From an uncultured Collinsella sp. (GTDB taxonomy: Bacteria; Actinomycetota; Coriobacteriia; Coriobacteriales; Coriobacteriaceae), in the NCBI GenBank assembly GCA_958445065.1, contig CAUCQW010000027.1, positions 1 through 29,458 on the forward strand: a stretch of 29,458 nucleotides of DNA. The letters are read 5' to 3'. How positions within the stretch are numbered: position 1 is the stretch's first letter; each line of letters opens with the position of its first letter. The translations under genes were made by a program, and so were the position numbers. The notes under the pieces are model-generated. The model was not told where the DNA came from, did not search any database, and saw only the letters and a list, made by a program, of their open reading frames with translations. Shown here piece after piece: positions 22,623-29,458 of the stretch.

Positions 22623-22638
22623 GCTGTCTTACCTATCC

Positions 22639-22770
22639 GGGCAGAGAGCAAGTTCCCCCCCGGCGCGTCCTCGGACATGCAAGAAGCCCTCGCTGCGCAC
22701 TTCGTGCGGCGAGGGCTTCTTGCGTCCTGCGGAGTGCGCCGGGGGGGGGGGGGGAACTTGCTCTCTGCCC
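22639..22770. repeat. Large nested inverted repeat with unequal poly-C/poly-G arms
   Basis: Outer arms: GGGCAGAGAGCAAGTT plus C7 plus GGCGC (22639-22666), and GCGCC plus G14 plus AACTTGCTCTCTGCCC (22736-22770). The inner stem GCAAGAAGCCCTCGC (22679-22693) pairs perfectly with 22709-22723 and continues into CGCAC-TTC-GTGCG. It may end the ilvE transcript, but there is no T-run. Confidence 0.85.
22741..22754 (+). repeat. Homopolymer run of 14 G
   Basis: Fourteen G in a row, against seven C in the opposing arm of the same palindrome (22655-22661). The difference points to expansion by slippage. Confidence 0.9.
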
Positions 22771-22856
22771 TGCGGGTTCGGCGATGTCACAACGGGCAAT
22801 GATTAATCTGAAAAAAGATGATGCGCGGTCTATTGGCCGCGCGTTGTGCGTGGATA

Positions 22857-24279: not shown

Positions 24280-24369
24280 TGGCGGAGAGAGGGGGATTCG
24301 AACCCCCGGAACGCTCTCGCGCTCAACGGTTTTCAAGACCGCCGCATTCAACCGCTCTGCCATCTCTCC
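24280..24369 (-). tRNA. tRNA-Ser (anticodon UGA)
   Basis: Ninety bases including an encoded CCA (24280-24282). The acceptor arm GGAGAGA pairs with TCTCTCC and G is the discriminator base. The anticodon loop reads CTTGAAA with anticodon TGA. The long variable arm (GAGCGCGAGAGCGTTC) and the T-loop GGTTCGAATCC fit tRNA-Ser. It decodes UCA and, by wobble, other UCN codons. Confidence 0.97.
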
Positions 24370-26641: not shown

Positions 26642-26765
26642 AGCGCCTAGCGCGTTCGATGGGTTCGGATGACGACATGTTCCGAATCTGGTCAGGTCCG
26701 GAAGGAAGCAGCCATAAGGAGCCTCTGTCGGGCATCCGAATCCATCGAGCGCACGGGCGTTTTTT
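26642..26765 (+). ncRNA. ffs: Signal recognition particle RNA (4.5S type)
   Basis: The universal SRP core is present: GGTCAGGTCCGG followed by AAGGAAGCAGCC (26690-26713), which is the Ffh-binding loop. The long stem closes with GCGTTCGATGGGTTCGGATG (26652-26671) against CATCCGAATCCATCGAGCGC (26733-26752). A T6 run (26760-26765) ends it. It is about 120 nt, the short bacterial form without an Alu domain. It works with Ffh and FtsY to target membrane proteins. Confidence 0.95.
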
Positions 26766-27015: not shown

Positions 27016-27058
27016 AAAGAGGCCCGTTTCCCTGGGTTGGGGAAACGGGCCTCTTTTT
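27016..27058. terminator. Terminator of surface protein copy 1
   Basis: AAAGAGGCCCGTTTCCC (27016-27032) pairs perfectly over 17 bases with 27040-27056; T5 follows on the plus side and three T follow on the minus side, so it can work both ways. Confidence 0.88.
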
Positions 27059-27101: not shown

Positions 27102-28119
27102 CTATTTTGAGTTCTTGAGGCGGCGTGTGGCTGTGGCGGTTATTCCGAGGCCTGCGGCGGCGACTGCTGCGAGTGCGATTGCGCTCGGCGCTGCATCGCC
27201 CGTGTTCGCTAGCTTGCCGGCGGTCGTATCTGCTTGCTTGCCGCTGCTCGAGTTCGCCTGCTTGGTGGAGCTTGGCGGGGTATTTTTGCCGGTCGCGGAC
27301 GAGCCGGTGGGCTGTGTCGTCTCGGTCGGTTGCGCTGAGCCGGAGGGAGGTGTTGTCTCGGTGGGTTTTGTTATCTCGGGTGAGGCGGCCTTATCTGCTG
27401 CGGCTTTTGCCTCTTCGTATGCCTTGCAGGCATCGTCATAGGCCGTTTGCGCCTTTTTCAAATCGTCGAGGAGCGCATCTCGCTTGGCTATGTCCTCATC
27501 GATGTGGGCTTTAGCTTCCTCCGCCTCACTTTCGGAATCCTGAACCTGTCTTTCCTGGCTTTCGAGCCGGCGTCGGTAGGAGTGAAGATCATCTTCACAA
27601 GATTTCTCTCGCCTTTCTGCCGACATGATCTCACGTCGCAACTGCTTAATATGCTCTTTAGTAGCTGTGCTGGGCTCCTCGTCGCCGAGTGCTTCAAGTG
27701 CCTTATCTAATTCTGCCTGAAGGCCGCTTGTCCGGCTGTGGGCCTCATCGTATTTGGCTTGGGCTGCATCGACGTTCGCTTGCATGGCGGGAAGGCGTTC
27801 CCTCCGTTTGGCGGCTTCCGTCACCACCATGTCGTAGATCTCTTGAAAAGCGGCAATGTCATCATCGATTACCGCAAGTTTCTCGAGACTTGCGGCGTCT
27901 TTTGCGGCCTCGAGGTTTTTGAGCGCTTCCTGCATGGCTGCATACGCTTTTTCTTTTGCGGCGGTCGCATCTTCCGTCTGCAAGACAACTGCACCGGTGG
28001 GGGAACTGGTTTCTGCCGCGATCGCCGTTACGGGGGGGGGCGATTCCCGCGACAAGCGCCGCGGAAAGGGCGATGCCCACAGTTGCTCGTCTTGCTCTTC
28101 TTGCGAGAATGTCGTTCAT
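27102..28119 (-). CDS. Phase-variable coiled-coil surface protein with LPxTG-like anchor, copy 1 (frame OFF)
   Basis: The real start is ATG 28119, with GAGGTG upstream. It encodes a signal peptide (basic MNDILARRARR, then a hydrophobic run ending near AGIAP). At a run of nine C (minus strand, 28040-28032) the frame breaks: as sequenced, the product would be only 85 residues. The body (from VTAIAAETS on) lies in the next frame and has no start of its own except a TTG. The whole span is 1018 bases, one more than a multiple of three; with eight C it would be a 338-residue protein. The body has a long charged coiled coil, a Pro/Thr/Ser stalk, the sortase motif LANTG (27198-27212), a membrane helix and a basic tail RRLKNSK. 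A role in adhesion or immune evasion is inferred. Confidence 0.8.
28032..28040 (+). repeat. G9 tract (slippage site) in surface protein copy 1
   Basis: Nine G on the plus strand, inside the signal peptide region. Eight or eleven would join signal and body in one frame (GCC-CCC-CCC-GTA); nine does not. Confidence 0.9.
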
Positions 28120-28333: not shown

Positions 28334-28378
28334 AAAGAGGTCCGTTTCCCTGGGTTGGGGAAACGGACCTCTTTTTGT
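28334..28378. terminator. Terminator of surface protein copy 2
   Basis: AAAGAGGTCCGTTTCCC (28334-28350) pairs over 17 bases with 28358-28374. Compared with copy 1, a C-G pair has become T-A on both sides of the stem. Confidence 0.88.
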
Positions 28379-28419: not shown

Positions 28420-29458
28420 CTATTTTGAGTTCTTGATGCGGCGCGTGGCTGCGGCGGTTATTCCGAGGCCTGCGGCGGCGATTCCTGCGAGCGCGATTGC
28501 GCTCGGCACTGCGTCGCCCGTGTTCGCGAGCTTGCCGGCGGTCGTATCTGCTTGCTTGCCGCTGCTCGAGTTCGCCTGCTTGGTGGAGCTCGGCGGGGTA
28601 TTTTTGCCGGTCGCGGACGAGCCGGTGGGCTGTGTCGCCTCGGCCGGTTGCGCCGAGTTGGAGGGAGGCGTCGTCTCGGTCGGTTGCGTTATCTCGGGCG
28701 AGGTGGCCTTGTCTGCCGCGGCCTTTGCCTCTTCGTATGCCTTGCAGGCGTCGTCATAGGCCGTTTGCGCTTTTTTCAAATTGTCGAGGAGCGCATCTCG
28801 CCAGGCTATGAACTGGTCGATATGGGCTTTATACTTCTCTGCAGCACGCTCACAGTCATTAACTTGTCTTTCCTGCCTTTTGAGGCGGTCCTGGGCCTCG
28901 CGGAGCTCCATTTCGCAAAAGTCAACTCGCGCTTTTGCCGTTACGATCTCTTGGCGCAACGACTTTATTTGCTGTTTAATAGTTTCGGCAAGCTCCTCGT
29001 CGCCGAGTGCTTCGACTGCCTTAAGCTCCTCAAGCTTCATGTCTAATTTTTCCTGGAGCTTGCTTACCCGGTTGATGGCCTCGTCGGTTTTGGCTTGGGC
29101 TGCATCGATGTCCGCTTGCATGGTGGGGAGGGATTCCCTCAATTCGGCGGCTTGCGCCGCCATCTTGTCGCGGAGCTCTTGAAAACGGGCAATGTCATCA
29201 TTGAATCTCGCAATTTTCTCGGGACTTGCGGCGTCTTTTGCGGCCTCGAGGTTTTTGAGCGCTTCCTGCATGGCTGCATACGCTTTTTCCTTTGCGGCGG
29301 CCGCATCTTCCGTCTGCAGGGCGCCCGAATTGCCGTTGGCGGTGCTCGTCTGCGAAACGGCCGCACCGGTGGGGGTGCTGGTTTCTGCCGCGATCGCCGT
29401 TACGGGGGGGGGCGATTCCCGCGACAAGTGCCGCGGAAAGGGCGATGCCCACAGTTGC
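28420..29458 (-). CDS. Phase-variable coiled-coil surface protein with LPxTG-like anchor, copy 2 (frame OFF, 5' end cut)
   Basis: A paralogue of copy 1. The window ends inside its signal peptide (ATVGIALSAALVAGIA is visible in frame up to the tract). Again nine C on the minus strand (29412-29404) put signal and body in different frames, so both copies are OFF in the same way. The body is about 330 residues: a 12-residue insert (SQTSTANGNSGA) near the mature N-terminus that copy 1 lacks, a coiled coil of different sequence, then an almost identical stalk, LANTG (28516-28530), membrane helix and tail RRIKNSK. Start and promoter lie outside the window. Whether one or both copies are ever expressed together cannot be told from here. 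Confidence 0.78.
   Translation of the reverse strand, partial: QLWASPFPRHLSRESPPPVTAIAAETSTPTGAAVSQTSTANGNSGALQTEDAAAAKEKAYAAMQEALKNLEAAKDAASPEKIARFNDDIARFQELRDKMAAQAAELRESLPTMQADIDAAQAKTDEAINRVSKLQEKLDMKLEELKAVEALGDEELAETIKQQIKSLRQEIVTAKARVDFCEMELREAQDRLKRQERQVNDCERAAEKYKAHIDQFIAWRDALLDNLKKAQTAYDDACKAYEEAKAAADKATSPEITQPTETTPPSNSAQPAEATQPTGSSATGKNTPPSSTKQANSSSGKQADTTAGKLANTGDAVPSAIALAGIAAAGLGITAAATRRIKNSK
29404..29412 (+). repeat. G9 tract (slippage site) in surface protein copy 2
   Basis: Nine G at the position equivalent to the tract of copy 1, flanked by the same GTTAC and CGATTCCCGCG. Confidence 0.9.

What the first reader, a model, noticed from the sequence alone, without database searches (positions are those of the whole stretch)
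28000..28119. Poly-G switch separates signal peptide from body in a wall-anchored protein
A good ribosome site and ATG start a textbook signal peptide. Nine C (minus strand) then shift the frame away from a complete coiled-coil/LANTG protein. The gene span is 1018 bases, exactly one too many. Eight C would give GCC-CCC-CCC-GTA and a continuous 338-residue secreted protein whose signal would end near TAIAA. This is the standard design of contingency loci (short homopolymer in the 5' coding region of a surface protein), here seen in what appears to be a gut actinobacterium.
Basis: partly seen in the sequence, partly recalled or inferred. Interest (0 to 1): 0.85.

Follow-up and report, generated by a model that had tools for sequence, protein, structure and literature searches.

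The report
On/off poly-G switch in Collinsella protein
A gut bacterium (Collinsella) carries two neighbouring wall-protein genes whose reading frame depends on the length of a run of nine identical bases, and public data show versions of such genes that are identical except for that length, so the run very probably works as a random on/off switch.

Summary
Nine C (minus strand, 28032-28040) separate a signal-peptide-like start from an open 309-codon coiled-coil/LANTG body in another frame. The organism is a Collinsella near C. aerofaciens. Of 43 genomes of the genus, 9 match the junction: 8 have five C, in frame; only the genome nearest the window has nine. Listed public proteins imply lengths 4 to 11, and four groups have letter-identical bodies with different lengths: 7/8/10, 7/8/10, 7/8 and 8/9. 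The protein nearest copy 1 (3 differences in 309) implies seven. MutS was found in 0 of 13 relatives; NucS over its cut-off in 1 of 13, partially. Two other poly-G loci differ by one base between genomes. Best explanation: slipped-strand phase variation of a sortase-anchored coiled-coil surface protein, as described for Bifidobacterium pili and Gardnerella. Switching within a clone, expression and function are not shown. No Collinsella report turned up in the searched library; the kind is known.

The parts
27102..28119 (-). copy 1: wall-protein gene, out of frame at its tract (ATG to body stop, 1018 bases)
28041..28119 (-). signal-peptide-like start of copy 1, before the tract
   Evidence: same 5' end as in-frame relatives. 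No signal-peptide predictor was run
28032..28040 (-). nine-C tract of copy 1 (G9 on + strand), the proposed switch
   Evidence: lengths in relatives
27105..28031 (-). body of copy 1, 309 codons: coiled coil, proline/serine-rich stalk, LANTG tail
   Evidence: model of the in-frame homolog P0289
27198..27212 (-). LANTG motif (LPXTG-like), followed by a hydrophobic stretch and basic tail
   Evidence: read; NCBIfam LPXTG_anchor over cut-off for copy 2 only
28420..29458 (-). copy 2: tandem paralog, same layout, 5' end beyond the window; 327-codon body
29404..29412 (-). nine-C tract of copy 2, also out of frame
27016..27056 (.). 19-pair terminator-like palindrome after copy 1
   Evidence: listed on + strand; number of such sites in the region is near the shuffled mean
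28334..28374 (.). 19-pair terminator-like palindrome between copy 2 and copy 1
   Evidence: same caveat

Best explanation
The tract is a slipped-strand (replication slippage) phase switch. Gain or loss of a base in the C:G run between the signal peptide and the body changes the reading frame. Natural alleles with 5, 8 or 11 C read through into a continuous secreted protein that a sortase would anchor through LANTG; alleles of other lengths give a short peptide and, most likely, no wall protein. Both copies in the window are in the out-of-frame state. Shown: the anatomy; different lengths on otherwise identical alleles; in-frame relatives; sortase genes and no detectable MutS in relatives. Inferred: replication slippage as the cause, reversibility within a clone, expression, anchoring, and the benefit (surface heterogeneity towards antibodies, phages or binding partners).
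For: Four groups of proteins with letter-identical bodies and different tract lengths (P0262/P0289/P0253 = 7/8/10; P0249/P0264/P0246 = 7/8/10; P0257/P0287 = 7/8; P0243/P0274 = 9/8). The protein nearest copy 1, P0245, differs at 3 of 309 residues and implies seven. Of pairs with at least 99% body identity, 13 differ in length, each with a tract of seven or more on at least one side; 0 such pairs among five-C alleles. Out-of-frame to in-frame 29:29 for lengths of seven or more against 3:38 for shorter ones, p = 7e-6. In-frame five-C relatives in 8 genomes. Intact bodies in both window copies. No MutS in 0 of 13 relatives against 11 of 14 control genomes, weak NucS only. Sortase in 13 of 13 relatives. 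Two further poly-G loci with one-base differences. Same arrangement published in Bifidobacterium breve (PMC9187656).
Against: All three tracts read as DNA in the window and the nearest genome are nine, all out of frame. No read data, no single-clone comparison. Most identical-body variants are single sequences on single assembled contigs, where homopolymer length can be wrong. Two five-C relatives (G007, G018) carry breaks elsewhere and G001 an apparent insertion, so loss of this gene is tolerated. dN/dS of the window bodies, 0.54-1.05, is not clearly purifying, though in-frame relatives give the same, 0.46-1.18. The search with the 85-residue out-of-frame peptide listed no protein with that reading. 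MutL was not searched for.
Confidence: 0.82

Rival explanations
1. In this lineage both copies are dead genes: the tract grew, the frame broke, and nothing selects for switching back.
For: Both window copies and the G001 copy are out of frame; G001 also runs into unrelated sequence; breaks at other places in G007 and G018; 10 of the 356 listed proteins end in a common KALLD-type truncation.
Against: Bodies of 309 and 327 codons without a stop; an almost identical allele with another length (P0245); identical alleles in and out of frame elsewhere.
Confidence: 0.09
2. The nine-C length is a sequencing or assembly error.
For: Homopolymers are error-prone; PMC9187656 reports that the annotated G-tract length in B. 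breve differs from the main population length (passage).
Against: Nine appears in two window copies and independently in the MAG G001; lengths 7, 8, 9, 10 and 11 occur in many records from several sources, while five-C alleles show no such scatter.
Confidence: 0.05
3. The frame is corrected at the RNA or ribosome level (transcriptional slippage or programmed frameshifting), so the protein is made all the time.
For: Homopolymers can make RNA polymerase or ribosomes slip (general knowledge, no call).
Against: Length differs at the sequence level between identical alleles, and the commonest alleles have only five C, in frame, which such a mechanism does not need.
Confidence: 0.02

Closest known systems
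G-tract switch of sortase-dependent pili in Bifidobacterium breve UCC2003 (bbr_0113, bbr_1889) and other bifidobacteria (PMC9187656; abstract and passages seen)
   Same: Gut actinobacterium; G/C homopolymer near the start of a sortase-dependent surface-protein gene; length decides whether two reading-frame halves fuse; range of lengths in the population
   Different: There the switch controls pilus operons with their own sortase, and slippage was measured and selected in mice; here single coiled-coil genes in tandem, no pilin domain found, evidence from public assemblies only
Variable homopolymer tracts in Gardnerella (PMC11287997; abstract and one results section read)
   Same: Actinobacterium; tracts of 8 or more bases linked to surface proteins including LPXTG types; one tract Sanger-sequenced at 9 or 10 in single colonies
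   Different: Most G/C tracts there lie upstream of the gene; different protein families; another class of Actinobacteria
Translational contingency loci of Neisseria, Campylobacter and Helicobacter (listings seen; otherwise recalled)
   Same: Slippage in coding homopolymers switches surface-related genes on and off
   Different: Gram-negative hosts, unrelated proteins, many cases shown by experiment

Membership tests
Simple-sequence contingency locus (translational phase variation) | Long homopolymer inside the 5' coding region | tested here: met
   Nine C at bases 80-88 of the gene, twice
Simple-sequence contingency locus (translational phase variation) | Tract length sets the frame of an otherwise intact gene | tested here: met
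   Open bodies of 309 and 327 codons in another frame; relatives in frame
Simple-sequence contingency locus (translational phase variation) | Length varies among otherwise identical alleles | tested here: met
   Four groups with letter-identical bodies; as protein predictions from assemblies, not reads
Simple-sequence contingency locus (translational phase variation) | Reversible switching within a clone | not testable with these tools
   No reads or cultures
Simple-sequence contingency locus (translational phase variation) | Phenotypic heterogeneity of the product | not testable with these tools
   No proteomics or assay
LPXTG-type sortase-anchored wall protein | Signal peptide, sorting motif, hydrophobic stretch, basic tail | tested here: inconclusive
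   All read by eye, motif LANTG; LPXTG_anchor 16.7 bits over cut-off 15.9 for copy 2, not listed for copy 1; no signal-peptide predictor run
LPXTG-type sortase-anchored wall protein | A sortase in the cell | tested here: met
   PF04203 in 13 of 13 relatives; the window's own genome is not held
Bifidobacterial sortase-dependent pilus gene with G-tract | Pilin domains | tested here: not met
   No pilin family in Pfam or NCBIfam for P0001 and P0002 up to E 0.1 except HmpF-like coiled-coil matches far below cut-off
Bifidobacterial sortase-dependent pilus gene with G-tract | Dedicated sortase in the same operon | not tested
   Neighbouring ORFs were listed but not scanned for sortase

The most novel reading that the evidence does not exclude
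Collinsella, in which neither MutS nor a convincing NucS was found, runs a genome-wide set of poly-G switches in wall proteins, pilin-like proteins, sugar transferases and at a BREX defence gene. The family described here shows such a switch being born: a stable five-C form and a variable form of seven or more coexist in one gene family, and tandem copies multiply the states.
Probability: 0.45. Interest if true: 0.7.

Novelty: new member of a known kind. Interest (0 to 1): 0.55.

Why it matters
If true, a common human gut actinobacterium makes mixed populations that differ in a surface protein without any regulator. That matters for strain comparison, antibody and phage recognition, and annotation: out-of-frame alleles stand in databases with wrong N-termini. 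The family also offers a natural comparison of locked (five) and switchable (seven or more) alleles of one gene, so the tract length at which switching starts can be measured directly.

Tried and rejected
The 85-residue out-of-frame peptide as a query listed no protein with that reading among the best 120 of 123; gene callers report the body from other starts, which the third search caught. A scan of viral contigs for the junction found 0. A profile search of solved structures found 0; the fold comparison gave coiled coils, best E 8e-4 for an SMC5/6 arm, the only hit below 0.001, so no function is drawn from it. dN/dS does not separate live from dead. Weak profile matches (SMC, tropomyosin, HBL and others) lie below their cut-offs and reflect coiled coil. 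An apparent link between long tracts and GTA rather than GCA after the tract was dropped, because the query carries GTA and the lists are ranked by score.

Rows dropped before counts: 3 of 356 proteins unclassified (P0124, P0258, P0275); 2 of 120 unclassified, whose tests used only proteins of 280 residues or more; bodies under 150 residues and pairs under 95% coverage; the class called long includes one pair with lengths 6 and 8. One search left out tracts near contig ends; one search lists all 29. Of these 29, 11 were looked at by eye and 9 proteins scanned; no enrichment test was made. For one search, 40 of the listed proteins were chosen by hand.

Full report
What is there. On the minus strand, copy 1 runs from ATG at 28119 to the stop at 27102: 1018 bases, one more than a multiple of three. 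The first 79 bases encode a signal-peptide-like start. Bases 80-88 are nine C (28032-28040). Read from the ATG, the frame stops after 85 codons. From the tract on, another frame is open for 309 codons and ends in LANTG, a hydrophobic stretch and a basic tail. Upstream, copy 2 (28420 to beyond 29458) has the same layout and its own nine C at 29404-29412; 98 of 106 bases around the two tracts are identical. A 19-pair palindrome follows each copy, so each looks like a separate unit, although the scan found no sigma-70-type promoter and no more terminator-like sites (5) than shuffles give on average (4.2). Long G/C runs are rare by chance: 3 runs of nine or more against 0.20 expected.

Whose it is. 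The window's own assembly is not held; the nearest genome, G001, shares 46% of its sampled words. Named relatives are Collinsella aerofaciens and Collinsella sp.; G001 has two contigs of the same lengths (46398 and 7464) as a MAG called uncultured Collinsella sp.. The protein matched 14 of 58 related genomes: 8 strongly, 6 weakly (E above 1e-5).

Tract length in genomes. A pattern across the tract, allowing 5 to 19 bases, matched 9 of 43 genomes of the genus. Eight genomes (nine tracts, two of them the tandem pair of G059) have five C and are in frame across the tract. Of these nine genes, five run through to the tail, two (G007, G018) break further down, and two (G009, G019) run off their contig. 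Only G001 has nine C. The G001 copy then runs into unrelated sequence after the codons for KEKA, so it looks interrupted as well.

Tract length in public proteins. The family is large: 3630 proteins at E up to 0.001 among 7989 scored candidates, 120 listed. Because the residues before the tract differ in each frame, the predicted protein tells the length. In-frame products read GIA-P(n)-V/A. One out-of-frame class reads SRES-P(n), the other RGNR-P(n), from other start codons. Of the 356 proteins listed could be sorted: length 4 (2), 5 (289), 6 (1), 7 (20), 8 (29), 9 (2), 10 (7), 11 (3). These are not population frequencies, since each list is the top 120 by score. The decisive result: bodies identical letter for letter occur with different lengths, P0262/P0289/P0253 with 7/8/10, P0249/P0264/P0246 with 7/8/10, P0257/P0287 with 7/8, and P0243/P0274 with 9/8. 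The protein nearest copy 1 is P0245, 3 differences in 309, with seven. Copy 2 has no such close partner (best 91%, five C). Among pairs of at least 99% body identity, 13 differ in length, each with a tract of seven or more on at least one side, and 1 long pair has the same length; among five-C alleles 15 pairs have the same length and 0 differ. The database is clustered at 90%, which removes same-length pairs, so I rest only on 0 against 13. In the third search, proteins of 280 residues or more split 29 out of frame to 29 in frame for tracts of seven or more, and 3 to 38 for shorter ones (p = 7e-6); score ranking biases these lists, in both classes. Most of the variant proteins are single sequences on single contigs, so single lengths can be wrong; the pattern as a whole is hard to get from error.

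Mechanism. The MutS family PF00488 was found in 0 of 13 relatives and in 11 of 14 control genomes. NucS (PF01939) matched 2 of 13, one of them over the cut-off, each over less than half of the profile; 7 of 14 controls. MutL was not tested. This fits unstable homopolymers. Sortase was found in 13 of 13. A model of the in-frame homolog P0289 has three helices (41-75, 78-143, 147-238), confident from about residue 50, then a stretch without confident structure to the end (mean pLDDT 70.5, pTM 0.51). The in-frame product is most simply a wall-anchored coiled-coil protein on a flexible stalk. The out-of-frame product lacks cleavage site, body and anchor. Replication slippage is the likely cause, by analogy with the published cases. 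With two copies a cell has four possible states. The function of the protein is open; variation towards antibodies, phages or binding partners is a guess.

Other loci. In G001 and G014, 16 and 13 distinct tracts of eight or more were listed; 11 of the 29 were inspected. Some lie at the start of genes for BrxA (PF08849, 112.6 bits, cut-off 23), sugar transferases (PF02397, 198.8 and 203.9 bits), pilin-like proteins (Flp_Fap, 20.0 bits, below the cut-off of 32.2) and large secreted-looking proteins without a family. Two were measured across the genus, 43 genomes each: the tract beside brxA is nine in 4 and ten in 2 of the 6 genomes that match; a secreted-protein tract is nine in 4 and eight in 1 of the 5 that match, nine being in frame. 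The start codon of brxA relative to its tract is not settled. No enrichment test was made, so the genome-wide reading is a lead.

Against known systems. Replication slippage at intragenic G-tracts of sortase-dependent pili, with enrichment in mice, is published for Bifidobacterium breve (PMC9187656; abstract and passages seen). Variable homopolymers near LPXTG and other surface genes are published for Gardnerella (PMC11287997; abstract and one section read). Searches for Collinsella with phase variation (7 papers, 7 listed), with homopolymer, LPXTG and related terms (96, 20 listed), with surface protein (46, 20 listed) and with poly-G, slippage and frameshift (178, 10 listed), and for Coriobacteriia or Eggerthella with phase variable or homopolymeric (1,058, 20 listed), listed no paper whose title or shown abstract describes this; one search listed a preprint on capsule inversions in Eggerthella lenta. 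Most listings were capped and the library lacks most subscription journals, so a report elsewhere is possible. I call it a new member of a known kind.

What stays open. No read data were seen; clonal switching, expression and wall location are inferred. All three tracts read as DNA in the window and its nearest genome are nine, so a locally dead lineage remains possible, at about 0.09.

Noticed in passing
window 22636-22780 (G14 at 22741-22754, C7 at 22655-22661): An intergenic hairpin element whose arms hold C7 and G14. In three relatives (L126-L128) the same arms read CCCTCCC and GGGAGGG. Like elements match 10 to 14 times per genome in 9 of 21 relatives (some are the two strands of one palindrome). 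Looks like a run that grew by slippage after both arms lost the interrupting base.
   Followed up: partly
L079 (G001), L113 (G014): A poly-G tract at the 5' end of a BREX brxA gene: nine in 4 genomes, ten in 2 of the 6 that match of 43. A possible phase-variable phage defence; the start codon is not settled.
   Followed up: partly
L089/L122, L116, L118, L105, L108, L101, L103: Further G8-G11 tracts at the start of secreted-looking, pilin-like and sugar-transferase genes in G001 and G014; the L089 locus has eight instead of nine in G019.
   Followed up: partly
L018 after position 1645; proteins P0131, P0134, P0135, P0141, P0148, P0150, P0160, P0186, P0188, P0241: 10 of 356 listed family proteins end at the same point in a KALLDQ/KALLDH-type tail, and the G001 copy runs into the same kind of sequence at its contig end. 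Perhaps a mobile element with a fixed target in this gene.
   Followed up: no
family alignment A3: The family is mosaic: start (to about residue 75) and tail nearly invariant, middle of the coiled coil variable; dN/dS among copies 0.46 to 1.18. Suggests diversifying or recombining surface antigens.
   Followed up: partly
window 26656-26751 (+) and 24283-24369 (-): Small SRP RNA gene and a tRNA gene, the ordinary chromosomal neighbourhood of the pair.
   Followed up: no
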